64,000 nt of DNA, from positions 1,959,001 through 2,023,000 of the forward strand of contig NZ_JARXYR010000002.1 in NCBI RefSeq assembly GCF_029893635.1, read 5' to 3'. A program made the translations under genes and the position numbers. Each line of letters begins with the position of its first letter. Position 1 is the first letter of the stretch. The notes under the pieces were generated by a model that had not been told where the DNA came from, ran no database searches, and was given only the letters and a program-made list of their open reading frames with translations. This document shows positions 15,201 through 44,108 of this stretch, piece after piece. This stretch comes from Variovorax sp. TBS-050B (lineage in GTDB: Bacteria > Pseudomonadota > Gammaproteobacteria > Burkholderiales > Burkholderiaceae_C).

Positions 15201-15885
15201 GGACCTGCGCCCGGTGACCGAGTTCTGCAACCGCGCGATCGCGGGCCGCTATCCCTTCGTGGGCAGCAGCAAGCGCGACGTGCTGCCCGAGGACTTCGGC
15301 CAGATGTTCGGCGCCGGCGGGCTGATGGACGAGTTCTTCCAGAAGCGGCTCGCGTCGCTGGTCGACACCAGCACGCGCCCGTGGCGCTACAAGCCCGTGG
15401 CCGAGCGCGGCGCCGTCACCACGCAGGCGCTCGCGCAGTTCGAGCGTGCCGCGCGCATCAAGGACATCTTCTTCCGCGCCGGCGGCCGCGGCCCCTCGAT
15501 GCGGCTGGACTTCAAGCCGGTGGAGATGGACGCGGGCATCACCCAGTTCATCCTCGACGTGGACGGCCAGCTCGTGAAGTACGCGCACGGCCCCGTGGTG
15601 CCGATGGCGGTGCAGTGGCCCGGCCCCAAGGGCAGCAATCAGGTGCGCATCCAGGTCAGCCCGCCCTCGGCCACCGGCAGTTCGGGCGCCGCGGTCGACG
15701 GACCCTGGGCGCTGTTCCGCGCGCTCGACGACGGCCAGCTCGAAGCCGGCGACGCGCCCGAGAAGTTCTTCATCACCTTCCAGATCGGCGCGCGCAAGAC
15801 CCGCTTCGAGGTGACGACCAACAGCGTGCAGCATCCGATCCGCCTCAAGGAGCTGCGCGAGTTCTCCTGTCCGGAGGGCTTGTGA
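12285..15885 (+). CDS. tssM: T6SS inner-membrane protein TssM (IcmF), apparent single-base frameshift near 12490
   Basis: TssM is the large membrane-complex protein that binds TssL and TssJ across the periplasm. ATG 12285, overlapping the tssL stop, opens a frame with two membrane helices (about residues 8-27 and 45-62) that reads naturally as far as LRALWRRWRR near 12490. The rest of the family sequence lies in the next frame, where ASQHLTDGLMKAP leads into the 1118-residue body: the Walker A motif GAPGAGKT, a third helix near 13675-13735, and the periplasmic IcmF domain. The two halves add up to about 1199 aa, the normal TssM length, so one extra base in the GC-rich run 12481-12505 would explain everything. 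It may be a real inactivating mutation, but other similar breaks in this window suggest a sequencing error. Confidence 0.9.
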
Positions 15886-16442
15886 GCGCGCATGCATTGC
15901 CCGGCTGGTTCGGCAAGCTGCCCGGCATGGGCGACTTCGCGCACCGGCGGCTGCCCGACTCCTTCCGTTCGGTGTGGGACGCCTGGCTGCAGCGCGGCAT
16001 GGCGCGGCTGCGCGACCGGCATGCGGACTGGACCGCGCACTACCTGGAGGCGCCGGTGTGGTGCTTCGCGCTCGGGCCTGGTGTGGCCGGCGACGCGGCG
16101 TGGATCGGCGTGATGATGCCTTCGGTCGACGGGGTGGGGCGGTACTTTCCGTTCACGCTGGCGGGGGCGGCTTGGGGGGATGCGGTCCAGTGGTGGGGGC
16201 TTGCGACGCGGGCGGCGCTGGAGGGGCTGGAGGATGACCTCGATCCGGAGCGGTTCGATGCGGTGCTGGGGCGGGAGTTTGCTTCTGCGGCTGCGGAGAC
16301 CGGCGCTCCGGTCGTGCTGCCTGGGCACGGGGAGTCGGTTTGGATGACAGATCCGGGGGATGGGCCATCGGCTCGGATGGTGGTTCGGGGCTTGCCTTCT
16401 GGGGAGCAGTTCGAGGCGCTGTTTCTGGGGGGTGGGGAATGA
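15882..16442 (+). CDS. tagF: T6SS-associated protein TagF
   Basis: A small cytoplasmic accessory protein of 186 aa with the N-terminal TagF signature PGWFGKLPGMGDFAHRRLP and WLQRGM. TagF proteins act as post-translational repressors of T6SS assembly in systems that also carry a kinase, phosphatase and FHA protein, all of which occur in this locus. The start is a GTG at 15882 overlapping the tssM stop (GTGA). Downstream comes a 560-bp palindromic repeat rather than a gene, so transcription of the next block may be partly separate. The protein is short, with only the TagF domain and no fused phosphatase domain. Confidence 0.88.
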   Translation: MSAHALPGWFGKLPGMGDFAHRRLPDSFRSVWDAWLQRGMARLRDRHADWTAHYLEAPVWCFALGPGVAGDAAWIGVMMPSVDGVGRYFPFTLAGAAWGDAVQWWGLATRAALEGLEDDLDPERFDAVLGREFASAAAETGAPVVLPGHGESVWMTDPGDGPSARMVVRGLPSGEQFEALFLGGGE

Positions 16443-17055: not shown

Positions 17056-18981
17056 ATGACCGACTCCGACCAAGACCGCACCCGCGTCGTCCCACGCGCG
17101 CCCGAACCGCCGCCGACGACGACCACCACCACCGAAGGCGACACCACCGCCACCGTCATCACCGCCGGCAGCACCAGCCTGTCGCCCCATCCCGTCACCA
17201 CCCCCGCCACCGGCGCGCACGAAGCCGGCCTGCTTCCGGTCGGCAGCCGCCTCGCGGAGTTCGAGATCACGCGCGTCATCGGTCAGGGCGGCTTCGGCGT
17301 GGTGTACGAGGCCTGGGACCACACGCTCGAGCGCGTGGTCGCGATCAAGGAATACCTGCCGACCTCGCTCTCGACGCGGCAGCAGGACGGCACGGTGGTG
17401 CCGCTGTCGGAGCGGCACCGCGAAACCTTCGACCTCGGCATGCGCAGCTTCATCAACGAGGCCCGGCTGCTCGCGCAGTTCGACCATCCCTCGCTGCTCA
17501 AGGTCTACCGCTTCTGGCAGGAGAAGGGCACCACCTACATGGTGATGCCGTTCTACCGCGGCGACACGCTGCGCCAGGCGCTGGTGTCCATTCCCGCGGG
17601 CGTGGACGAAGCCTGGCTGATCCGCATCATGGACGGCGTGACGCAGGCGCTCGCGGTGATGCACGGCGCCAACTGCTACCACCGCGACATCGCGCCCGAC
17701 AACATCATCCTGCTCGAAGGCTCGGGCCGGCCGGTGGTGCTCGACTTCGGCGCCGCGCGGCGCGTGATCACCGACAAGACGCAGGCGATCACCGTCATCC
17801 TCAAGCCCGGCTACGCGCCGATCGAGCAGTACGCCGAGATGCCCGACATGTCGCAGGGCGCCTGGACCGACGTGTATGCGCTCGCGGCCGTGATGCACGT
17901 GGCGGTCTGCGGGCGCGCGCCGCCGCCGTCGGTGGCGCGGCTGCTGTCCGACAGCTACGTGCCGCTCGCGGGCAACGAGATCCTGCGCCAGCGCTACAGC
18001 CTGCGGCTCCTGCAGGCGATCGACGCGGGCCTGGGCGTGCGGCCCGAATCGCGGCCGCAGTCGATGGCCGAACTGCGCGCGGCGCTCGACCTCGAGGCCA
18101 CGCACAGCATCGCGCCGACGCCGCGCACCTCGCCGCCGGCGGCGGGCCATGCGCGCGCCGACCTGCCGACCACCATCGGCCGCGGCAAGGCGATGCCCGC
18201 ACCCCCGCCGCCCGGCGGCGCGGGCCGGGACATCAAGGACGGCAGCAGCAGCAACAACAACAGCAGCAGCAAGGCCGTGGCCGCGATCGCCTCGGTCGCG
18301 GTGCTGGCCGCGGTGGCGGGCGGCGGCTGGTGGTGGTTCCAGGGCCGCGGCGCGGACACCGGCGCCTCGGCCGGCAGCGGCACCCAGGTGGTCGCCACGG
18401 CGCCGCCGCCACCGCCCGAGACGCGGCCGGCCGAGGCCCCGCCGCCGCCGCCGCCACCACCCCCCAAGCCGCGCACGCCGCTCGAATCGCTGCAGTCGCT
18501 CGCGGCCGGCGCCGCGCCGGACTTCGAGGTGACGGCCGCGCCGAAGAAGGCCGAGGTCGCGATCGGCAAGGACAGGCTCGGCTTCGACGTCCGGAGCAAG
18601 CGCGACGGCTTCGTCTACGTGTTCCTGCTGTCGAGCGGCGGCGAGATGTTCCTGCTGTTCCCGAACCTGCTCGACAAGCACAACAGGATCGCCGCGGGCG
18701 GCTCGCTCTCGCTGCCGCGCGCCTCCTGGCCGATGGATGCCGGCGGTCCGGCCGGCACCAACCAGTTCGCGGTGCTCGTGAGCGAGCACGAGCGCGACTT
18801 CGGCGATGCGGGCGTCCGCAGCGACGGCGTGTTCCCGCAGTTCCCGCTGCCCGTGCTGGCTGCGCTCGAGGCCAGCCGCGGCACCGGTCCGTCGCCGCTG
18901 CTGGGCAAGCCGGTGTGCGCGCCCGGCGCGCCGTGCAAGGACGCCTATGGCGTCGCGAATTTCAAAATCGTCGAGAAGTAA
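17056..18981 (+). CDS. T6SS-associated Ser/Thr protein kinase with single membrane helix and DUF4384-like periplasmic domain
   Basis: A PpkA-like kinase of 641 aa. After a Thr/Pro-rich leader, the kinase domain (about 68-350) has the glycine loop GQGGFG (76-81), catalytic Lys98 in VAIKEY, HRD with Asp211, Asn216 and DFG (230-232), so it looks active. A Pro-rich linker and a Ser/Asn run precede one transmembrane helix (about 406-425). Another proline run leads to a periplasmic domain (about 505-600) resembling DUF4384 (DGFVYVFLLSSGGEMFLLFPN). The likely role is threonine phosphorylation of T6SS partners such as the FHA protein TagH, opposed by the PP2C phosphatase at 42116. ATG 17056 has an AAGGAG site 7-12 bases upstream. 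Expression starts just beyond a 560-bp palindrome. Confidence 0.9.
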   Translation: MTDSDQDRTRVVPRAPEPPPTTTTTTEGDTTATVITAGSTSLSPHPVTTPATGAHEAGLLPVGSRLAEFEITRVIGQGGFGVVYEAWDHTLERVVAIKEYLPTSLSTRQQDGTVVPLSERHRETFDLGMRSFINEARLLAQFDHPSLLKVYRFWQEKGTTYMVMPFYRGDTLRQALVSIPAGVDEAWLIRIMDGVTQALAVMHGANCYHRDIAPDNIILLEGSGRPVVLDFGAARRVITDKTQAITVILKPGYAPIEQYAEMPDMSQGAWTDVYALAAVMHVAVCGRAPPPSVARLLSDSYVPLAGNEILRQRYSLRLLQAIDAGLGVRPESRPQSMAELRAALDLEATHSIAPTPRTSPPAAGHARADLPTTIGRGKAMPAPPPPGGAGRDIKDGSSSNNNSSSKAVAAIASVAVLAAVAGGGWWWFQGRGADTGASAGSGTQVVATAPPPPPETRPAEAPPPPPPPPPKPRTPLESLQSLAAGAAPDFEVTAAPKKAEVAIGKDRLGFDVRSKRDGFVYVFLLSSGGEMFLLFPNLLDKHNRIAAGGSLSLPRASWPMDAGGPAGTNQFAVLVSEHERDFGDAGVRSDGVFPQFPLPVLAALEASRGTGPSPLLGKPVCAPGAPCKDAYGVANFKIVEK

Positions 18982-19039
18982 TCGTCTGCAGAGCGTGGGC
19001 CCCGGGGGCCCGTCCGTCTTTCACGACCAGGAGGCTTTC

Positions 19040-20620
19040 ATGAACACACGGTTGCCGATCTTCCATGCCGCGCTGCGCTGGGCCGCCGCCGCGGCGGCCA
19101 TGCTCGCCGCGGGCTGCGCCAACACGCCGCCGGCCGCCGACACCGCCGCGGCGCCCACCGCCGCCACCACGGCCGCGCCGGACACGTCCGCATCGCGCCC
19201 CGCGCCCGGCGCCAGCGTGGCGGGCCAGGCGCGCACCTTCTCGACCCAGCTCGCCACCTACACCGCGGTGAGCTTCGATGCCGTGCCCGGCTGGCGGCGC
19301 GACGACTTCTCCGAGAGCTGGCCCGCCTTCCTCACGAGCTGCAAGGTGCTCACCGGCCGCGGCGCCGAGTGGCGGGAGGTGTGCGCGCGCGCGCTCAAGG
19401 TCGACAGCCGCAACGACACCGCGATCCGCGCCTTCTTCGAGCAGGAGTTCTCGGCCTACCAGATCCGCGACGACGACCGCCGCCCCGACGGCGTGGTCAC
19501 CGGCTACTTCGAACCCGAGATCCCGGGCAGCCGGCAGTACGCGCCGCCCTACATCTACCCCGTCTACGGCCAGCCCGAGGACATGCTGTTCGCCGACGCG
19601 CGCAAGCTGCCGGCCGGCAGCGGCACCGTGGCCGCGCGCGTGGAGGGCCGCAACGTGGTGGTGCAGACCGGCCTGAGCACGCGCGACATGGGCGCGCCGG
19701 GGCTCTACGCGCTTGACCTCTCCGGCATCACGCGCGACACGCTCGACCGCAAGGTGCGCCTGCGCATCGAGGGCAAGCAGCTGCTGCCGTACTACACGCG
19801 CGAGGAGATCGAGACCAAGGGCGCGCCCAACGCCAAGGTGCTGGCCTTCGTCTCCAGCGCCACGGCGCTCTACGAGATGCAGATCCAGGGCTCGGGCCGC
19901 ATCAAGCTCGCCAACGGCGACATCATCCGCGTCGCCTATGCCGAGCAGAACGGCCAGCCCTTCCGTCCCACGCTCGCGCAGGCGCCCAACGGCAAGCCGC
20001 GCAGTCCGGTGAAGGTGCGCGGCGCATCGATCGAACTCGAACTCGACGACGGCGACGAGGACGATGCGGCGACCGACACCGGCACCATCCGCACGCGCGG
20101 CTTCACGCTCGCGCGGCCCGCCACCAGCGGGGCCGTGGTGGTGCCGGGGCGCCGCACCACCGGCGCCGTGAGCGGTTCCGGCATCAAGGATCCGAGCTAC
20201 GTGTTCTTCAAGGAGTCGCCGTCGCCCTCGGGCGGACCGGTGGGCGCGTTCGGCGTGCCGCTGTCGGCGGGCCGCTCGATCGCCGTCGATCCGCGCAGCA
20301 CGCCGCTGGGCTACCCGGTGTTCGTCTCCACGCGCGCGCCCGGCACCGGCGCGCCGATGCAGCGCCTGACCATCGCGCAGGACACCGGCGGCGCGATCCG
20401 CGGCGCGGTGCGGGCCGACTATTTCTTCGGCAACGGCCAGCAGGCCGCGAACAACGCGCGCCGCATGAAGGAGCGCGGCCAGCTCTGGATCCTGCTGCCG
20501 CGCGGGCTTGCGGTGGCGCAGGCGGCGGTGTCCTCGGCCATCCGCACGCGCGGCGCCGCCGTGGGCGCCGGCCTGCCCCAGTGCCTGGTGCCGACCGAGG
20601 GCGTCTGCGTCGACGACTAG
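19040..20620 (+). CDS. mltA: Membrane-bound lytic murein transglycosylase A (MltA-type lipoprotein)
   Basis: An outer-membrane lipoprotein of 526 aa that cleaves peptidoglycan glycan strands. The signal peptide ends in the lipobox LAAGC with Cys26. The MltA domain includes DGVVTGYFEPEIPGS, and the C-terminal 3D domain has AQDTGGAIRGAVRADYFFG with the expected catalytic Asp448. An acidic insertion (ELELDDGDEDDAATDTG, about 331-347) interrupts the domain relative to E. coli MltA. I chose ATG 19040, 9 bases after GGAGG, because it gives the lipoprotein signal; a longer upstream frame lies in the kinase gene. Its place between the T6SS kinase and the sigma-like gene suggests it opens the cell wall locally for assembly of the secretion apparatus rather than being a housekeeping copy. 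Confidence 0.9.
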   Translation: MNTRLPIFHAALRWAAAAAAMLAAGCANTPPAADTAAAPTAATTAAPDTSASRPAPGASVAGQARTFSTQLATYTAVSFDAVPGWRRDDFSESWPAFLTSCKVLTGRGAEWREVCARALKVDSRNDTAIRAFFEQEFSAYQIRDDDRRPDGVVTGYFEPEIPGSRQYAPPYIYPVYGQPEDMLFADARKLPAGSGTVAARVEGRNVVVQTGLSTRDMGAPGLYALDLSGITRDTLDRKVRLRIEGKQLLPYYTREEIETKGAPNAKVLAFVSSATALYEMQIQGSGRIKLANGDIIRVAYAEQNGQPFRPTLAQAPNGKPRSPVKVRGASIELELDDGDEDDAATDTGTIRTRGFTLARPATSGAVVVPGRRTTGAVSGSGIKDPSYVFFKESPSPSGGPVGAFGVPLSAGRSIAVDPRSTPLGYPVFVSTRAPGTGAPMQRLTIAQDTGGAIRGAVRADYFFGNGQQAANNARRMKERGQLWILLPRGLAVAQAAVSSAIRTRGAAVGAGLPQCLVPTEGVCVDD

Positions 20621-20624
20621 GCCC

Positions 20625-21374
20625 ATGCAGGAGACGCTGTCGCCGTTGGAAAGTGCGGAGCTCGTGCGCCTCTGGCGCCGGCGCCAGACGCTGTCGCCCG
20701 GCGACATGGGCACGATGTACCGCATCGTCGGCGACGCGCTCGTGGCCTGCAATCCGCCGGAGCTGCAGGTGCTCGGCGAAGGGCGGCAGGAGCTGGTGGC
20801 GCAGTTCATCTACGTGAAGGTGCTGCGCCTCGATGCCGACCCCGACGAGGCCGACGAGCGCGCAAGCCACAGCGCGCCGTCGAGCGCCTTCGCGCTGTGC
20901 GCGTACTTCCGCCGCTACCTGATCGACTGCACCCGCGCCAGCGCATTCCGCCGCAAGCTCTCGATCGGCGACCAGGTGACCGAGGCGCAGCTCGAAGAGG
21001 CGCTCGGCGCCGATGAGGACATGGACGCCTGCCTGGCCGAGCACGGCCTGAGCGCGGCGCGCGTGCAGCAGGCGGCGCGCGACTTCATCGCCGGGCTGGA
21101 CGAGCCCGAGCGCCTGCTGCTGTGCGAAGGCTTCGGCAAGGAGGCCGAGGGCGGGCTCTCGGGCATCGCCTCGCGGCATGCGATCGCCTCCTACCACTAC
21201 CGCGCCGGCCGGCTGGGCCTGGTGCACAAGCGCGAGGCGCTCACGGCCGACTACGCCCGCACGCGCCTCGGCGGCTGGATCGCGCAGACGCTGGGCATCG
21301 CGATCGAGCGCGAGAACATGGCCGCGATCCTGCAGGTTTTCAAAATCCTCGGCGCTGAAGCGTCTTATGCCTGA
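20625..21374 (+). CDS. Sigma-70-like (ECF-type) protein of unknown function in T6SS locus
   Basis: A 249-aa protein not assignable to a named family by eye, but with an overall ECF sigma-factor plan. The segment AQFIYVKVLRLDAD...FALCAYFRRYLIDCTRASAFRRK (about 60-115) resembles sigma region 2, with its helix and downstream Arg-rich end. LDEPERLLLCEGFGKE followed by GLSGIASRHAIASYHYRAGR (about 160-195) resembles region 4, with a helix-turn-helix. A glycine-poor, acidic spacer separates the two. It could be a diverged sigma factor or a protein that reuses the fold. ATG 20625 lies 4 bp after mltA. The next gene overlaps its end by 8 bp and encodes a single-pass membrane protein with the topology of an anti-sigma factor, which is why I favour a regulatory pair (inference). 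Confidence 0.6.
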   Translation: MQETLSPLESAELVRLWRRRQTLSPGDMGTMYRIVGDALVACNPPELQVLGEGRQELVAQFIYVKVLRLDADPDEADERASHSAPSSAFALCAYFRRYLIDCTRASAFRRKLSIGDQVTEAQLEEALGADEDMDACLAEHGLSAARVQQAARDFIAGLDEPERLLLCEGFGKEAEGGLSGIASRHAIASYHYRAGRLGLVHKREALTADYARTRLGGWIAQTLGIAIERENMAAILQVFKILGAEASYA

Positions 21375-22545
21375 AGACATAGCCATTCAGGAACAGAAGA
21401 CCGCCATGCACACCGAACTCTGGCCCCCCCTCAGCGTGATCCGCAGCGCCTTCGAGGCGCCGGGCGCCGCGCCCGCCCCGGCGCCCGCGCACGATGCGCC
21501 CGCCGTCGTCGCGATGCCGGGCGCTGCCGCGGCAGCCGCAGCCGCGCCCCGGGCCGTGCTCGACCTGCTGCTGCCCCTGCACGAACTCGCGGTGCGGCGC
21601 GAGGCCGTGGCGCGCCGCGGCTTTCCCGCGCGCTGGGCGCCGGGACGGCTCGTGAGCGTGGTGCACGAGGGGCGCCTGCTCGGCGTGCTGCTCGACCGCT
21701 GCGTCCACGGCCAGTCGTGGCAAGGCTGGATGGCCGCGGGCGAGGCCGACTGGGCCGGCGCCCACGACGTGCTGCTCGAACCCGAGGACGAGCCTTTCGA
21801 GCCGGCGTTCGGACTGATCCAGGCCTGGAACGTGGTCACGCTCGAGCCCGGCCCGCAGCTCTGCGCGCGCGTGCTCGGCGAGGTCTCGGCCACGCGGCTC
21901 GCCGCGATCCGCGCGGTGCATGACGAATGGGCGGCGCAGGTGCCGCTTTCGATCGCGCCCGAGCCCGGCCACATCGCCCTGCGCACCGTCGGCGGCGTGT
22001 TCCCGGTGCTGTGCGGCACGCCGCTCGGGCCCGAGGACCCGCGCGCCGACTACCAGCAGCTCTATCGCACCGCCGCCTCGCAGCTGGGTGCGGCCCTGCG
22101 GCCTGCGCAGGCCGGCGGCGCATCGGCGGCCGCGCCGCGCGCGCAGCCGCAGCCGCGCCCGTTCGACGGCTGGTGGGGCAGCATCCGCCGCTGGTTCGGC
22201 GCCGACGGCTGGATGCGGCCCGCGCTCGGCGTGCTCGCGCTGGTCGTGGTGGTGCAGAACGCGGGCCTGCTGGCCGGGCGCGGCGCCGAGGACGACGCGG
22301 TGCGCTTCCGCGCCGTGCCCACCGCACCCGCCGCGCCCGCCGCCGACATCGTCGTGCGCTGGAAGGACGGCGTGCGCATGGACGAGGCCGACCGGCTGCT
22401 GCAGTCGGTGGCGGCCGAGGTGGTGGGCGGCCCGGGCAGCAACGGCGTGTGGCGCCTGCGCGTGCCCGATGCGCAGAAGGGCCTCGAGGTGCTGGCCGCA
22501 TCGCCGCTGGTCGAGACCGCCGCGCGGGCGCCGGAGCGGCCATGA
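21367..22545 (+). CDS. Single-pass membrane protein of unknown function, anti-sigma-like topology
   Basis: Unrecognised 392-aa protein. A long N-terminal domain rich in Ala/Pro, then charged and aromatic (about 1-280), contains LLLPLHELAVRREAVARRGF and IQAWNVVTLEPGPQLCARVL. One membrane helix lies at about 285-303 (ALGVLALVVVVQNAGLLAG). A short C-terminal domain (about 320-385), DIVVRWKDGVRMDEADRLLQ, resembles the small alpha/beta fold of subtilisin propeptide-type inhibitors. With positive-inside reasoning the N-terminus is cytoplasmic and the C-terminus periplasmic. ATG 21367 overlaps the sigma-like gene by 8 bp; ATG 21406 is an alternative. The stop overlaps the caspase-like start. The arrangement fits a membrane regulator of the sigma-like protein, with the propeptide-like tail facing the exported caspase-like protease. 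Both ideas are inference. Confidence 0.6.
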   Translation: MPEDIAIQEQKTAMHTELWPPLSVIRSAFEAPGAAPAPAPAHDAPAVVAMPGAAAAAAAAPRAVLDLLLPLHELAVRREAVARRGFPARWAPGRLVSVVHEGRLLGVLLDRCVHGQSWQGWMAAGEADWAGAHDVLLEPEDEPFEPAFGLIQAWNVVTLEPGPQLCARVLGEVSATRLAAIRAVHDEWAAQVPLSIAPEPGHIALRTVGGVFPVLCGTPLGPEDPRADYQQLYRTAASQLGAALRPAQAGGASAAAPRAQPQPRPFDGWWGSIRRWFGADGWMRPALGVLALVVVVQNAGLLAGRGAEDDAVRFRAVPTAPAAPAADIVVRWKDGVRMDEADRLLQSVAAEVVGGPGSNGVWRLRVPDAQKGLEVLAASPLVETAARAPERP

Positions 22546-24677
22546 ACCATGGCGCGCGGCTCCCCGTCTTGCTCCCTCCCCCCCCGGGGGAGGGCGGGGG
22601 TGGGGGCACGCGGCGCTCGCTGGTGGCGCCGCGGCCCCCATCCCTGCCTTCCCCCAGGGGGGGAAGGAGTCTCGGGCTGCATGTCCTCCTGCTCGCCACG
22701 CTGTTCGTCCTCGCCGTGCCCGCCTTCGCCGCTCAGCGCGCGCTGCTCGTCGGCGTCTCCGAGCTGGTCAACCAGCCGCAGTCGCTCTGGCTGCAGGCGC
22801 CGCGCAACGACGTGATGCTGATGCGCGACGCGCTGCGGAAGCAGGGCTTCGCGCCCGAGGACATCGTGCTGCTGGCCGACGGGGTGGCCGGCGCGGCGCT
22901 GCCCGAGGCGCGTGCGATCCACGACGCCTTCGGCCGCCTGCTCGCGCGGTCGAAGAGCGGCGACTTCGTGCTGCTCTACTTCTCGGGCCACGGCACGCGT
23001 TGGCGCGATGCCGCCAAGCGCTACCAGGAGCCCGACGGCCTGGCCGAGAACTTTCTCGCGCGCGACGTGCGCGGCACGCTCGGTGCGGACAGTGCGCTCG
23101 CGGGCGGCGTGCGCGACGTCGATTTCGACGCCTGGGTGCAGGCCTTCCTCGCGCGCGGCGTGTTCGTGTGGTCGGTGTTCGACACCTGCGCCGCCACCTC
23201 GATGACGCGCAGCAGCGGCAGCGTCGCTGCGGCGACCGTGGCCGACGGACCGCCCGACGACGAGGTGCGCTGGCGCGGCCTGCGCGCGGTGCAGCTGCGC
23301 GCCACGGCCGAGGCGGCGCAGGCCGTGTCGCCGCCGCCGCCGGCCGAGCGCGTCGCGCGCGCACGCTACGTCGCGTTCTTCGCGTCCGAGAGCCACCAGA
23401 TCACGCCCGAGCTGCGCCTGCCGCGCAAGGCCCGCGGTGCGCAGCCGCAGGGCCTGCTCACCTGGGCTTTGGCCAGCGCGCTCGAACGGCGGCCCGCCAC
23501 CTGGCGCGCGCTGTTCGACGGCGTGCTGTCCTTCTATCCACCCGTCATCGACGAACTGGCGCAGCGCTTTCCCACGCGCGAACTGCCTTCGCCGGTGGCC
23601 GAAGGCAACCTCGATGCGCCGCTGTTCGCCAACGCGCCCGGCGCCGCATCCACCCGCCCGTCGTGGCGCGCGCAGCGCAGCGGTGACCAGCTGATGCTGC
23701 AGGCCGGGCTGGTCGACGGCCTGCAGCCGCAGCAGGAAGTGCGCCTGCAAGCGACGCTCGACGACGGCACCGTGCGCAGCGCGCAGGCCCGGCTGCGCGA
23801 GGTCGATCTCGACGCCGCCCGCGTCGGCGTGCCCGCGGCGCTGCGCGAGCTGCCGGGTGCGGCGCTCTGGAGCGCCTCGCCGCTCGCCGCCCCGGCCGCA
23901 TTCGCACTGCGCGTGCGCGGCGGCGAACGCGGGCTGCTGCCGCAGCAGCGCTTCAACCTCGACTATCCGGCGTCGGTCGTGCCGGCGGGCGGCGCCGGCG
24001 ACGGCGCGCCGCCCGACGTGCAGTGGAGCGACCTCGGCGCCGCGGGCCAGCGCATCGACGTCCTCTCGCCCGCGCTCGGTGCAGGCACGGTGCTGCTGCC
24101 CGATGCGGCCGCCGCGCGCCGCCGCATCGAAACGCTCGCGCGCCTCAAGTGGTGGAACCAGCTGCTCGCCGTCGGCCACGCCGCCGGCGCGCCGGTCGAT
24201 GGGTTCGAGGCCGTGCTCGAAGTGTGGCGCGGCGACCGCCTGCAGCGCAGCGAGCCCGCACAGCGCGCCGGCGCCGGCCAATTGCTGCCGCTGCGCGAGG
24301 GCGAACGCGCGGCGCTGCACGTGCGCAACGCGAGCGGCCATTCGATCGACATGGTGGTGGTCGGCATCGACGGCGAGGGCCGGCTGCGTGCCGTGTACCC
24401 CGACGATCCGGGCGAGACCAACCGCTTCGAGCGCGGCACGCGCGAGGCGCCGGCGGCCAAGCGCTTCGAGCTGCCGTGGCTCGCGGCGCCGGACGGCCGC
24501 CTGCTCGTGCTCGCCACCGTGGCCGGCGCGTACACCACGCCGCGGCTCTTCGGCGCCGCGCCGCCGGAGCCCGCGGCGGCCGAGCTGCGGCTGCGCGGCC
24601 AACCCCATTCCGACAAGACGCGGCAGACCTATGCCGCGATGGTGCGCTGGCCGGGCGAACGTCCGGCCGCGCGATGA
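22542..24677 (+). CDS. Exported caspase-like (peptidase C14) protein
   Basis: A 711-aa protein with a caspase-fold catalytic domain at about 64-290. AALLVG-type strand RALLVGVSELVN, FVLLYFSGHGT with catalytic His150 and VWSVFDTCAATS with catalytic Cys216 form an intact His/Cys dyad. Residues about 44-63 (LGLHVLLLATLFVLAVPAFA) form a signal peptide, so it should act in the periplasm or be membrane-anchored. The C-terminal 100 residues (LHVRNASGHSIDMVVVGI) resemble DUF4384, also found in the T6SS kinase. ATG 22542 overlaps the preceding stop (ATGA). Residues about 8-42 are encoded by a 98-bp palindromic repeat inserted in frame, which places the signal peptide unusually far from the start. A later start is possible, but no good ribosome site was seen. 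Confidence 0.8.
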   Translation: MNHGARLPVLLPPPPGEGGGGGTRRSLVAPRPPSLPSPRGGRSLGLHVLLLATLFVLAVPAFAAQRALLVGVSELVNQPQSLWLQAPRNDVMLMRDALRKQGFAPEDIVLLADGVAGAALPEARAIHDAFGRLLARSKSGDFVLLYFSGHGTRWRDAAKRYQEPDGLAENFLARDVRGTLGADSALAGGVRDVDFDAWVQAFLARGVFVWSVFDTCAATSMTRSSGSVAAATVADGPPDDEVRWRGLRAVQLRATAEAAQAVSPPPPAERVARARYVAFFASESHQITPELRLPRKARGAQPQGLLTWALASALERRPATWRALFDGVLSFYPPVIDELAQRFPTRELPSPVAEGNLDAPLFANAPGAASTRPSWRAQRSGDQLMLQAGLVDGLQPQQEVRLQATLDDGTVRSAQARLREVDLDAARVGVPAALRELPGAALWSASPLAAPAAFALRVRGGERGLLPQQRFNLDYPASVVPAGGAGDGAPPDVQWSDLGAAGQRIDVLSPALGAGTVLLPDAAAARRRIETLARLKWWNQLLAVGHAAGAPVDGFEAVLEVWRGDRLQRSEPAQRAGAGQLLPLREGERAALHVRNASGHSIDMVVVGIDGEGRLRAVYPDDPGETNRFERGTREAPAAKRFELPWLAAPDGRLLVLATVAGAYTTPRLFGAAPPEPAAAELRLRGQPHSDKTRQTYAAMVRWPGERPAAR
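22572..22669. repeat. 98-bp GC-rich palindromic element inside the caspase-like gene
   Basis: The arms CTCCCTCCCCCCCC...GGGGGAGGGCGGGGGTGGGGGC and the approximate reverse complement (GCCCCCATCCCTGCCTTCCCCC...GGAAGGAG) flank a short core. It is read through in frame as a Pro/Gly/Arg-rich peptide. The same type of element occurs in tssH at 31228-31340, so this is a dispersed repeat that tolerates coding regions. Confidence 0.8.
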
Positions 24678-24705
24678 CTGCTGTTTTTGTTCTCAGGAGA
24701 TCGAC

Positions 24706-25263
24706 ATGAGCTGGACTTACGACGGAAAACTGGACCCCGATGAGGCCCTGCGCCTGCTCGATCACCTCTCGGGCGAATCGGGCAACGACTTCGCGATGAT
24801 GATCGAGAGCAAGGGCTCGCCGATCGAGGGCGAATCGAAGCGCACTTACGAAGACGGCAAGCAGCGCATGGACATCGGCGGCTATTCGTACAAGACCGAC
24901 GTGGTCACGCCGCCGGGCGCCACCAAGGGCAAGCTGCGCAACTACCCCTTCATCGTGATCCGCGACTGCGATGCCGCGACCGCGTCGATCGCGAGCCTGC
25001 TGAAGAACCAGGATGCCGACCTCAAGGTCACGGTCTCGGTCTTCAAGGCCGGCGGCGACAGTTCGAAGGACCTGCAGTCGCACCTGGAGTTCGTGATGGA
25101 AGGCGCGCGCGTGCAGTGCCATGCCATCGTCACCGGCGGCCAGCCCAAGCGGCCCTGCGACATCATCTTCTTCAGCTACCGCAAGCTCGAGGTGCGTTCG
25201 GCGCCGCAGCAGCAGACCGGCGCGAGAGGCGCGGTCCGCACCTGCACCTTCGTCGAGGCATGA
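24706..25263 (+). CDS. Hcp-like protein (T6SS tube family homologue)
   Basis: A 185-aa protein that resembles Hcp over most of its length but is clearly diverged from the canonical Hcp at 43626. The pattern IESKGSPIEGES near residues 29-40 recalls the Hcp start (LKLEGVDGES). Later segments ITASLL-like FIVIRDCDAATASIASLL, LKVTVSVFKAG and IIFFSYRKLEV follow the Hcp order. It has an N-terminal extension of about 25 residues. It may be an alternative tube protein, a tube-loaded effector or adaptor, or a baseplate-proximal cap; the sequence does not decide. An AGGAGA ribosome site precedes ATG 24706. It lies between the caspase-like gene and tagJ, separated from tagJ by 1 bp. Confidence 0.65.
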   Translation: MSWTYDGKLDPDEALRLLDHLSGESGNDFAMMIESKGSPIEGESKRTYEDGKQRMDIGGYSYKTDVVTPPGATKGKLRNYPFIVIRDCDAATASIASLLKNQDADLKVTVSVFKAGGDSSKDLQSHLEFVMEGARVQCHAIVTGGQPKRPCDIIFFSYRKLEVRSAPQQQTGARGAVRTCTFVEA

Positions 25264-29658: not shown

Positions 29659-32436
29659 ATGAGTGAAATCAGCCGCACGGCCCTTTTCGGCAAGCTCAAT
29701 TCGCTGGCGTACAAGGCCATCGAAGGTGCCACCGTGTTCTGCAAGATGCGCGGCAACCCGTACGTCGAGCTGGAGCACTGGTTCGCCCAGCTGCTGCAGG
29801 CGCAGGACTCCGACCTGCACCGCGTGATCCAGCACTACGGGCTCGACGTCTCGGTGATCGCCAAGGACATGACGGCCGCGCTCGACCGCCTGCCGCGCGG
29901 CGCCACCGCGATCAGCGACTTCTCGCCGCACATCGAGAACGCGATCGAGCGCGCATGGACCTACGCCACCCTGCAGTTCGGCGAGGCCCAGGTGCGCACC
30001 GGCTACCTGATCGTCGGCATGCTCAAGACGCAGAGCCTGCGCAACCCGCTGTTCGGCCTGTCGAAGCAGTTCGAGAAGGTCAAGCTCGAGGACCTGTGCG
30101 ACAACTTCGCGAAGATCTGCGATGCCTCGCCCGAGGCGCAGATGCGCGCGCAGGACGGCACCGGGATGGGCAGCGGCGCACCGGGCGAGGATTCGGGCGC
30201 GATGGCGCCGGCCGCCATGGGCAAGGGCGATGCGCTCAAGAAGTTCGCGGTCGACCTGACCGAGAAGGCGAAGAAGGGCGAGATGGACCCGGTCACGGGC
30301 CGCGACGAGGAGATCCGCCAGATCGTCGACATCCTGATGCGCCGGCGCCAGAACAACCCGCTGCTCACGGGCGAGGCCGGCGTCGGCAAGACGGCCGTGG
30401 TCGAGGGCTTCGCGCAGCGCCTCGCGCGCGGCGACGTGCCGCCGCAGCTCAAGGACGTGAAGCTGCTCACGCTCGACATCGGCCTGCTGCAGGCCGGCGC
30501 GAGCATGAAGGGCGAGTTCGAGCAGCGGCTGCGCCAGGTGATCGATGAGGTGCAGAGCTCGCCGACGCCGATCATCCTGTTCATCGACGAGATCCACACG
30601 CTGGTGGGCGCGGGCGGCGCGGCCGGCACCGGCGATGCGGCCAACCTGCTCAAGCCCGCGCTCGCGCGCGGCAACCTGCGCACCATCGGCGCCACCACCT
30701 GGGCCGAGTACAAGAAGTACATCGAGAAGGACCCGGCGCTCACGCGGCGCTTCCAGGTGGTGCAGGTGCCCGAGCCCGATGAGACCAAGGCGATCCTGAT
30801 GCTGCGCGGGGTGGCCAGCGTGCTCGAGAAGCACCACCGCGTGCAGCTGCTCGACGAGGCGATCGAGGCCGCCGTCAAGCTGAGCCACCGCTACATTCCG
30901 GCGCGGCAATTGCCCGACAAGGCCGTGAGCCTGCTCGACACCGCCTGCGCGCGCGTGGCCGTGAGCCAGCATGCGACCCCGCCCGAGGTCGAGGACTGCA
31001 TGCGCCGCATCGAGGGCCTCACGGTCGAGCAGGAGATCATCGGCCGCGAGGAAGCGATCGGCATCGACGTGACCAGGCGCGCTGCACAGGTGGCGGCGCT
31101 GCTCGACGAATCGAAGACGCAGCTCGAAGCGCTCAATGCGCGCTGGCAGGAGGAGAAGGCACTGGTCGACCGGCTGCTGGAGCTGCGCGGCAAGCTGCGC
31201 GCAGGCAACAAGCCCGTCGACACTGCACTCCCTCCCCCGCTGGGGGAGGGCAGGGGTGGGGGCGCGACGGCCTCGCAATCACCGTCGGCCAGTGATGCGC
31301 CGCCGCCCCCACCCCAACCCTCCCCCAGCGGGGGAGGGAGCGAAGACCGGGCGGCACTGCTCGAGGAGCTGCATGCGCTGCAGGCCAAGATCCACGCGGT
31401 GCAGGGCGAGTCGCCGCTGATCCTGCCCTCGGTCGACGAGCAGGCCGTGGCCTCGGTCGTTGCCGACTGGACCGGCATCCCCGTCGGCCGCATGGTCAAG
31501 AACGAGGTCGAGGCGGTGCTCAAGCTCGCCGACACGCTCAACCAGCGCGTCATCGGCCAGAAGCACGGCCTCGAGATGATCGCGCGCCGCATCCAGACCA
31601 GCCGCGCGCGGCTCGACAACCCGCAGAAGCCGATCGGCGTGTTCATGCTCTGCGGCACCTCGGGCGTGGGCAAGACCGAGACCGCCCTTGCGCTGGCCGA
31701 GGCGCTCTACGGCGGCGAACAGAACATCATCACCATCAACATGAGCGAGTTCCAGGAGGCGCACACCGTCTCCACGCTCAAGGGCGCGCCCCCGGGCTAC
31801 GTGGGCTACGGCGAGGGCGGCATCCTGACCGAGGCCGTGCGGCGGCGCCCCTACAGCGTGGTGCTGCTCGACGAGGTCGAGAAGGCGCACCCCGACGTGC
31901 ACGAGATCTTCTTCCAGGTCTTCGACAAGGGCTGGATGGAGGACGGCGAGGGCCGCATGATCGACTTCAAGAACACGATCATCCTGCTCACCACCAACGC
32001 CGGCAGCGAGCTCGTGATGAGCATGTGCCGCGACCCCGAGCTGCTGCCCGATCCGAACGCGCTCGCCGATGCGCTCAAGGCGCCGCTGATGAAGGTGTTC
32101 CCGCCCGCGCTGCTGGGCCGCATCGTCACGATCCCGTACTACCCGCTCTCGCCCGAGATGATGAAGAAGATCGTGCGGCTGCAGCTGGGCCGCATCAAGA
32201 AGCGCGTCGAGACCAACCACGGCGTGCCCTTCGAGTACAGCGACGCGGTGGTCGAGCAGGTTGTCGCGCGCTGCCAGGACCCGGAGTCGGGCGGCCGCGT
32301 GATCGACGCGATCCTGACCAACACCGTGCTGCCGACCATCTCCGTCGAGTACCTGCAACGCCTCGCGTCGGGCGGCGAGATCCGCCGCGTGGCGCTGGAC
32401 GTGAAGGATGCCGACTTCACCTACGCCTTCGATTGA
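29659..32436 (+). CDS. tssH: T6SS AAA+ ATPase TssH (ClpV) carrying an in-frame repeat insertion
   Basis: A 925-aa ClpV ATPase that unfolds and recycles the contracted TssBC sheath. The N-terminal domain (about 1-160) has the ClpV-type AIEGATVFCKMRGNPYVELEH. AAA1 has Walker A GEAGVGKT (238-245) and FIDEIHTLVGAG. AAA2 has CGTSGVGKT (about 665-673) and VVLLDEVEKAHPDV. The coiled-coil middle domain (about 470-600) is interrupted at about 523-561 by a Pro/Gly/Ser-rich stretch encoded by a 113-bp palindromic repeat; both ATPase modules remain in frame. Such an insertion into the middle domain may alter arm length or hexamer regulation. The protein is about 35-40 residues longer than usual for this reason. 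Confidence 0.95.
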   Translation: MSEISRTALFGKLNSLAYKAIEGATVFCKMRGNPYVELEHWFAQLLQAQDSDLHRVIQHYGLDVSVIAKDMTAALDRLPRGATAISDFSPHIENAIERAWTYATLQFGEAQVRTGYLIVGMLKTQSLRNPLFGLSKQFEKVKLEDLCDNFAKICDASPEAQMRAQDGTGMGSGAPGEDSGAMAPAAMGKGDALKKFAVDLTEKAKKGEMDPVTGRDEEIRQIVDILMRRRQNNPLLTGEAGVGKTAVVEGFAQRLARGDVPPQLKDVKLLTLDIGLLQAGASMKGEFEQRLRQVIDEVQSSPTPIILFIDEIHTLVGAGGAAGTGDAANLLKPALARGNLRTIGATTWAEYKKYIEKDPALTRRFQVVQVPEPDETKAILMLRGVASVLEKHHRVQLLDEAIEAAVKLSHRYIPARQLPDKAVSLLDTACARVAVSQHATPPEVEDCMRRIEGLTVEQEIIGREEAIGIDVTRRAAQVAALLDESKTQLEALNARWQEEKALVDRLLELRGKLRAGNKPVDTALPPPLGEGRGGGATASQSPSASDAPPPPPQPSPSGGGSEDRAALLEELHALQAKIHAVQGESPLILPSVDEQAVASVVADWTGIPVGRMVKNEVEAVLKLADTLNQRVIGQKHGLEMIARRIQTSRARLDNPQKPIGVFMLCGTSGVGKTETALALAEALYGGEQNIITINMSEFQEAHTVSTLKGAPPGYVGYGEGGILTEAVRRRPYSVVLLDEVEKAHPDVHEIFFQVFDKGWMEDGEGRMIDFKNTIILLTTNAGSELVMSMCRDPELLPDPNALADALKAPLMKVFPPALLGRIVTIPYYPLSPEMMKKIVRLQLGRIKKRVETNHGVPFEYSDAVVEQVVARCQDPESGGRVIDAILTNTVLPTISVEYLQRLASGGEIRRVALDVKDADFTYAFD
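31228..31340. repeat. 113-bp palindromic element inserted in frame in tssH
   Basis: Terminal inverted repeats of 37 bp (starting CTCCCTCCCCCGCTGGGGGA and ending with its reverse complement) differ at only two positions. They flank a core of about 39 bp. The insert is translated as LPPPLGEGRGGG...PPPPPQPSPSGGG within the ClpV middle domain. It is related to the element at 22572-22669 in the caspase-like gene, indicating a dispersed family. Confidence 0.9.
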
Positions 32437-43625: not shown

Positions 43626-44108
43626 TCAGACCTTCTTGTTGGCCGCGATGTCCCAGCCGGTTTCCTTGGTGCCGTCGCCGGAACCGTCGGCCTTCTGGGG
43701 CGTGTACTCGTACTTGAACTTCGAGAAGTTCAGCGTGATGGTCTCGGTCAGGCGGTCTTCGCCGCCGCTGCCGCCGGTGCTGATGTGCGTCACGAGGATG
43801 TCTTCCATCGTGAGCTTGATGTATTCGAGCGGCGTGGCGCCGGCCTTGCGCACGGTGAGCACGCCCTTCTTGATGTGCTGGCCGTTGCAGCAGTCGAGCA
43901 GCAGCAGGTGCGAGGACGAATCGACGTACTTGGTGACCGAGAGGTCCTGCACGCTCACCTTGCCGGCGCCCGAGCCGCCGCCGACGTGGCCGGTGCCCGA
44001 CTGGCTGGCGCCCCAGCTCCACGAGAGCACGTCGATCTCCTTCTTGTGCCCGTCGTCCTTGGATTCGCCGTCGACGCCTTCGAGCTTCAAAAACATGTCT
44101 GCAGCCAT
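43626..44108 (-). CDS. hcp: T6SS tube protein Hcp (TssD)
   Basis: A 160-aa canonical Hcp: MAADMFLKLEGVDGESKDD at the N-terminus, then HKKEIDVLSWSWGASQSGTG. It forms the stacked hexameric rings of the inner tube, and is secreted. The sequence is the standard length, unlike the diverged Hcp-like protein at 24706. It lies in the minus-strand operon tssA-tssB-tssC-hcp, 151 bp after tssC. That gap is long enough to carry an additional promoter or processing site, which would fit the high Hcp amounts needed. Confidence 0.96.
   Translation of the reverse strand: MAADMFLKLEGVDGESKDDGHKKEIDVLSWSWGASQSGTGHVGGGSGAGKVSVQDLSVTKYVDSSSHLLLLDCCNGQHIKKGVLTVRKAGATPLEYIKLTMEDILVTHISTGGSGGEDRLTETITLNFSKFKYEYTPQKADGSGDGTKETGWDIAANKKV

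What the first reader, a model, noticed from the sequence alone, without database searches (positions are those of the whole stretch)
17056..25263. Kinase / sigma-like / single-pass membrane / caspase-like module embedded in the T6SS locus
Seen: between tagF and tagJ lie a Ser/Thr kinase, MltA, a protein with ECF sigma-like regions 2 and 4, a single-helix membrane protein overlapping it by 8 bp, an exported caspase-like protein (His150/Cys216 intact) overlapping that by 4 bp, and a diverged Hcp-like protein. Known: sigma factors are often paired with single-pass anti-sigma factors released by proteolysis. Inference: this could be an envelope-sensing circuit in which a periplasmic caspase-like protease acts on the membrane partner to free the sigma-like protein, linking T6SS activity or cell-wall opening to transcription. 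I know of no described system of this exact form.
Basis: partly seen in the sequence, partly recalled or inferred. Interest (0 to 1): 0.75.

Follow-up and report, generated by a model that had tools for sequence, protein, structure and literature searches.

The report
Sigma, membrane-partner, caspase set in T6SS
Inside a Variovorax cluster for a bacterial injection weapon sits a gene set that looks like a gene switch, a membrane protein that could hold the switch, and an exported caspase-type protease that could release it, a layout seen elsewhere with other proteases but not, in the papers we searched, with these parts.

Summary
Between tagF and tagJ lie a Ser/Thr kinase, MltA, a diverged sigma-like protein (SIGL), a single-pass membrane protein (TMP), a caspase with a signal-like N-terminus and intact His150/Cys216, and a weak Hcp relative. 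SIGL passes no Pfam cut-off, but an ECF-sigma profile scores 12 non-redundant SIGLs above background (AUC 0.95; nine control families 0.22-0.70). Distant SIGLs keep an acidic region-2.2 motif (DRED/DREE/DKEE); Variovorax mostly has GRQE. Strongest result: TMP's membrane/periplasmic half (subtilisin-propeptide/I9-like fold) is homologous to that of anti-sigma-like proteins in 16 other genomes. There a canonical ECF sigma gene lies directly upstream in 15 of 16, a subtilase downstream in 9 and a caspase in 1. So this is a variant of a sigma/anti-sigma/protease module with a new cytoplasmic domain and a caspase. Against a strict caspase switch: three related T6SS loci keep SIGL and TMP without the caspase, and two of those TMPs lack the membrane helix. 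A kinase switch (EcfK/PknS model) is less likely but not excluded: no conserved Ser/Thr in the 2.2 motif, though some elsewhere. Binding, cleavage and transcription are untested; SIGL's model is low-confidence. New variant of a known kind.

The parts
15882..16442 (+). TagF (left flank of the set)
   Evidence: Pfam TagF_N E 2.2e-37
17056..18981 (+). Ser/Thr kinase, kinase domain residues 69-290, hydrophobic segment from residue 407, DUF4384 domain 503-578; probably not the main sigma regulator
19040..20620 (+). MltA-type murein transglycosylase
   Evidence: Pfam MltA 3.9e-29, 3D 4e-21
20625..21374 (+). SIGL: diverged ECF-like sigma (region 2 about residues 3-117, region 4 about residues 130-226)
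21367..22545 (+). TMP: membrane-anchored partner of SIGL
21544..22071 (+). TMP cytoplasmic domain (about residues 60-235), preceded by the conserved LWPPL motif; no Pfam match
22222..22278 (+). TMP membrane helix (about residues 286-304)
   Evidence: hydropathy; aligned with the membrane segment of anti-sigma-like proteins
22330..22542 (+). TMP periplasmic I9/subtilisin-propeptide-like domain (residues 322-392)
22542..24677 (+). Caspase-family protein with signal-like N-terminus, catalytic domain match residues 66-315, His150/Cys216
   Evidence: Pfam Peptidase_C14 8.2e-9; metacaspase matches; dyad
22572..22669 (.). Palindromic dispersed repeat inside the caspase leader
   Evidence: self-match on the opposite strand, 82% over 100 bases
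24706..25263 (+). Diverged Hcp-like protein
   Evidence: T6SS_HCP 23.9 bits; weakest of 5 Hcp matches in the genome
25265..26095 (+). TagJ (right flank)
   Evidence: Pfam ImpE 1.7e-45

Best explanation
SIGL is a diverged ECF-type sigma factor. TMP is its membrane-anchored anti-sigma-type partner: a new cytoplasmic domain that holds SIGL, one membrane helix, and a periplasmic domain with the fold of a subtilisin propeptide (I9). In most relatives of that membrane half the protease gene next door is a subtilase; here it is a caspase with a signal-like N-terminus. The most likely working is that the exported caspase engages the I9-like domain in the periplasm. When the envelope is disturbed (by T6SS assembly, MltA cutting of the wall, or incoming hits), the caspase cuts TMP, further cleavage follows in the membrane, and SIGL is freed to raise transcription, probably of its own T6SS operon. 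Shown: genes, order, catalytic dyad residues, hydrophobic helix, homology of TMP's membrane half to anti-sigma-like proteins beside canonical sigma genes. Supported but not proven: sigma fold of SIGL. Inferred: export, binding, cleavage, signal, target genes.
Confidence: 0.47

Rival explanations
1. Core pair only: SIGL and the cytoplasmic domain of TMP form a sigma/regulator pair that senses a cytoplasmic state; membrane helix, I9 domain and caspase are optional add-ons. The caspase does some other envelope job.
For: L051 (237 aa) and L053 (234 aa) carry only the cytoplasmic domain beside SIGL; L048 has no helix; L049 keeps the I9 domain and an aligned helix (of lower hydropathy) without caspase; L098 keeps helix and I9 domain by alignment, with no caspase among the genes seen. 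The cytoplasmic domain is the best-conserved TMP part measured among 27 loci (mean distance 0.13 against 0.29 for the I9 domain).
Against: The membrane half is shared with anti-sigma-like proteins that sit next to protease genes in 10 of 16 loci; the caspase dyad is kept in 35 of 35 loci.
Confidence: 0.26
2. EcfK/PknS-like: the kinase at 17056 phosphorylates SIGL and so switches on the T6SS; TMP and caspase are accessory.
For: Kinase with kinase domain, hydrophobic segment and DUF4384 in the same locus. In Paraburkholderia L055 SIGL is followed by a PP2C phosphatase and in L056 lies near a kinase/cyclase. X. citri EcfK/PknS precedent (PMC13147305 abstract; PMC8999054 section 3.4). EcfK is also phosphorylated in its linker (abstract), and SIGL has invariant or nearly invariant Ser/Thr outside the 2.2 motif (S83, S86, T103, S113 in 20 aligned sequences).
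Against: No conserved Ser/Thr at the 2.2 motif: Ser in 22 of 127, Thr in 0 of 127 listed homologues that fit the pattern. No kinase hit in the stretches held for L052 (19,961 bp, with T6SS genes) or L053 (15,000 bp). MltA lies between kinase and SIGL.
Confidence: 0.15
3. SIGL is no longer a transcription factor; the set is a T6SS-linked envelope protease with its membrane anchor/inhibitor and a helper protein.
For: Loss of most acidic 2.2 residues in Variovorax; no Pfam sigma match over cut-off.
Against: SIGL is among the better conserved proteins of the locus (mean distance 0.10), with near-invariant region-4-like SYHYRA and region-2.4-like CAYFRRYLIDC stretches; acidic motif kept in distant members.
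Confidence: 0.12

Closest known systems
   Same: Gene order sigma, membrane partner, protease; homologous membrane helix and periplasmic I9-like half
   Different: Here no zinc-finger domain is found and a different LWPPL domain stands in its place, the sigma is diverged, the protease is a caspase, and the set lies in a T6SS operon
   Same: Sigma, membrane partner and caspase in the same order
   Different: Canonical sigma (Sigma70_r2 1.5e-15), different cytoplasmic domain, different caspase tail (Sel1 repeats); no T6SS gene was noticed in its 10.6 kb, which was not scanned for them
Xanthomonas citri EcfK/PknS (ECF43)
   Same: Sigma factor and transmembrane Ser/Thr kinase encoded in a T6SS locus
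   Different: EcfK is activated by phosphorylation, at Thr51 of sigma2 and Thr106 of the linker; SIGL has no conserved Ser/Thr at the 2.2 motif (its other Ser/Thr are untested), and it has an anti-sigma-type partner and a caspase
CRISPR Craspase (Csx29/Csx30/CASP-sigma)
   Same: A caspase-clan protease cuts an inhibitor of an ECF-like sigma factor
   Different: RNA-triggered and part of CRISPR loci; membrane partner and export are not part of it (recalled)
E. coli DegS/RseA/sigma-E
   Same: Envelope-stress protease acting on a membrane anti-sigma factor (as described in PMC10028731)
   Different: DegS is a serine protease (recalled); no I9-like domain or caspase (recalled)

Membership tests
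ECF sigma factors | Match to Sigma70_r2 / r4 profiles over the curated cut-off | tested here: not met
   P0002 no sigma match in Pfam; best relative L053 Sigma70_r2 E 1.2, 9.4 bits against 24
ECF sigma factors | Sigma2-sigma4 fold | tested here: inconclusive
ECF sigma factors | Profile-level similarity above controls | tested here: met
   AUC 0.949 for 12 non-redundant SIGLs, nine controls 0.217-0.700 with 3 to 15 members each
ECF sigma factors | Acidic DAED-type motif in region 2.2 | tested here: not met
   Window protein GRQE; distant relatives DRED, DREE, DKEE
Membrane anti-sigma factors (zf-HC2 type) | Gene directly downstream of a sigma gene | tested here: met
   TMP directly follows SIGL, itself only sigma-like
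Membrane anti-sigma factors (zf-HC2 type) | Zinc-finger anti-sigma domain in the cytoplasmic part | tested here: not met
   No Pfam match at all in 11 of 11 and 18 of 18 TMPs at E 10
Membrane anti-sigma factors (zf-HC2 type) | One membrane helix and a periplasmic half homologous to theirs | tested here: met
   of the two matched proteins scanned, L124 has zf-HC2 and L126 has not
Membrane anti-sigma factors (zf-HC2 type) | Binds and inhibits the sigma factor | not testable with these tools
Caspase family (Peptidase_C14) | Profile over cut-off and His/Cys dyad | tested here: met
   35.9 bits against 21.4; dyad in 35 of 35 loci
Caspase family (Peptidase_C14) | Proteolytic activity | not testable with these tools
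   Needs assay
ECF43 / EcfK-PknS | Phosphorylatable Thr in place of the DAED motif | tested here: not met
   0 Thr and 22 Ser in 127 listed homologues that fit the pattern
ECF43 / EcfK-PknS | Ser/Thr kinase encoded next to the sigma gene | tested here: inconclusive
   Kinase two genes upstream here; no kinase hit in the stretches held for L052 and L053
CRISPR Craspase | Type III-E CRISPR effector and array in the locus | not tested
   T6SS genes surround the set; no CRISPR search was run

The most novel reading that the evidence does not exclude
A T6SS operon carries its own caspase-triggered sigma switch: an exported caspase reads its state through an I9-like bait domain on a membrane anti-sigma, whose cytoplasmic domain is a new sigma-binding fold, so that envelope damage or T6SS firing is turned into T6SS transcription. 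It would be a periplasmic, membrane counterpart of the CRISPR Craspase switch.
Probability: 0.3. Interest if true: 0.82.

Novelty: new variant of a known kind. Interest (0 to 1): 0.62.

Why it matters
How T6SS producers sense the state of their own envelope or an attack, and what exported bacterial caspases do, are open questions (my judgement). This set offers a testable answer to both, with a clear prediction (cleavage of a named membrane protein) in a soil bacterium. It also points to a wider group that none of my six paper searches brought up: anti-sigma-like proteins with a subtilisin-propeptide-like periplasmic domain next to a protease gene, seen here in genomes of several families.

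Tried and rejected
Sequence identity for SIGL and TMP by Pfam, NCBIfam, PHROGs, PADLOC and PDB sequence search: no usable match. Profile-profile alignment SIGL against ECFs: collinear over 185 columns but probability 3%.

Covariation between the I9 domain and the caspase: a first partial Mantel test gave r 0.56, p 0.0005 on 27 loci. With non-linear terms, the caspase domain split in two and adjacent-gene controls on 23 loci, it was 0.08 (p 0.17) and 0.22 (p 0.0075), while unrelated neighbours such as MltA/SIGL gave 0.34. I do not use it.

Shared DUF4384-like domain in kinase and caspase tail: weak hhalign match (P 0.005, probability 7%), not found by Pfam in the window or L052 caspase; left open. 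CHAT gene next to SIGL/partner in L137: Pfam CHAT E 0.003, below cut-off, no PADLOC match; only a lead. Two of the four hits (G943, G1019; E 1.4e-4 and 3.1e-4) showed no SIGL-like gene and are probably chance. Caspase relatives on alphaproteobacterial plasmids (H6, H7): their upstream small genes show no sigma or TMP likeness by eye, and the two of H6 have no Pfam match. Frame errors of mine: and protein 7, were read in a wrong frame (MltA, TagJ); redone (MltA; TagJ). The first ECF extraction used wrong strands; redone. The regex tally at the end is uninformative; only its L028 line and positions are used. Literature: (capped listings, titles and abstract starts) showed no description of this set.

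Changed on checking: kinase rival raised from 0.13 to 0.15 and the best reading and core-pair rival lowered by 0.01 each, because SIGL has conserved Ser/Thr outside the 2.2 motif and EcfK is also phosphorylated in its linker.

Full report
What is there. The window lies in a genome close to Variovorax: all 34 loci are titled Variovorax, at up to 92% identity for SIGL (genome handle G000). I call the 20625 product SIGL and the 21367 product TMP. The caspase has a Peptidase_C14 domain, a hydrophobic segment near its N-terminus, and His150/Cys216; its nearest solved relatives by sequence are metacaspases 4 and 9. Export is inferred from the N-terminus.

Distribution. SIGL was found in 12 of 299 family genomes and 5 of 399 order genomes, own genome counted; the searches score only part of their first-look candidates, so misses are possible. 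A distant member used as query hit 4 of 369 class genomes: G000, G883 and two that are probably chance. Of 12 non-redundant SIGL groups, 7 have a TMP-type partner directly downstream (representatives L087, L041, L044, L045, L046, L091, L093) and in 5 none was found (L054, L055, L056, L089, L090). In loci L002-L035 the caspase was found in 32 of 34; the contig of L017 ends before it and that of L026 breaks off inside TMP. L047, L050 and L052 also have it. In these 35 the dyad is intact and TMP has helix and I9-like tail, read by eye. Without caspase: L048 (I9-like end but no helix), L049 (I9-like end and an aligned helix of lower hydropathy), L051 (neither) in T6SS loci; L098 (both, by alignment; no caspase among the genes seen in 7.7 kb) and L053 (neither). 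The genomes of L049, L051, L053, L098 and L137 have no match to the caspase at E 0.001; that of L048 has a weak 34% match over residues 45-159 elsewhere.

Mechanism. The anatomy best fits a sigma factor held by a membrane partner whose periplasmic propeptide-like domain is a docking or bait domain for the neighbouring protease. A propeptide fold makes sense beside a subtilase; that the same half is kept beside a caspase, here and in L126, suggests the domain is a general protease-contact or cut site, not only a subtilase inhibitor (inference). Cleavage by the caspase, later intramembrane cleavage and release of SIGL are inferred by analogy with DegS/RseA and with Craspase, where Csx29 cuts Csx30, an inhibitor of an ECF-like sigma (PMC10028731, passages seen). 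Loci without caspase or without a membrane part show that SIGL and the cytoplasmic domain form the core and that the periplasmic input can be absent.

Comparison. X. citri EcfK/PknS shows that a T6SS locus can carry its own sigma circuit (PMC13147305, abstract and outline seen; PMC8999054 section 3.4 read). There phosphorylation of a Thr in sigma2 and of a linker Thr is needed. SIGL has no conserved Ser/Thr at the 2.2 motif, and two relatives have no kinase hit in the stretch held; but Ser83, Ser86, Thr103 and Ser113 are invariant or nearly so in 20 aligned SIGLs, so control by phosphorylation elsewhere is not excluded. PMC8999054 section 3.3 (read) says that for group ECF54 control by proteolysis without an anti-sigma factor has been proposed, because carboxypeptidase, subtilase and CHAT proteins lie in its genetic context; this is the nearest published idea that I saw. 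Six searches (capped listings) showed no paper on this set; the main ECF reclassification paper was not read.

Verdict. New variant of a known kind; interest 0.62.

Noticed in passing
window 22572-22669 and 31227-31351: A palindromic dispersed repeat lies in frame inside the caspase leader and inside clpV; the caspase query also gave 12 further short matches in the genome, nearly all to this leader stretch.
   Followed up: partly
window 24706-25263: The Hcp-like gene is unusually variable among Variovorax loci (42% to 91% identity to the window) while TagJ beside it stays at 77-92%, as if exchanged between strains.
   Followed up: no
L056 15001-15720; L054 15001-15720; L055 15001-15711: SIGL relatives without TMP on Burkholderiaceae megaplasmids: next to a TOMM bacteriocin kinase/cyclase cluster (L056), near VgrG/PAAR genes and a cyclase (L054), and in a T6SS locus followed by a PP2C phosphatase (L055).
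   Followed up: partly
L137 8325-10562: SIGL fragment at a contig end and a TMP-type partner followed by a gene with a weak CHAT match (E 0.003, below cut-off), a possible second caspase-clan association.
   Followed up: partly
window 18562-18789 and 24303-24524: The caspase tail and the kinase's DUF4384 region align weakly (hhalign P 0.005, probability 7%), so kinase and caspase may share a periplasmic domain; Pfam does not see it in the caspase.
   Followed up: partly
window 43704-44093, - strand: The strongest Hcp match of the genome lies in this window (E 4.6e-41), so the 24706 gene is not the main Hcp.
   Followed up: no
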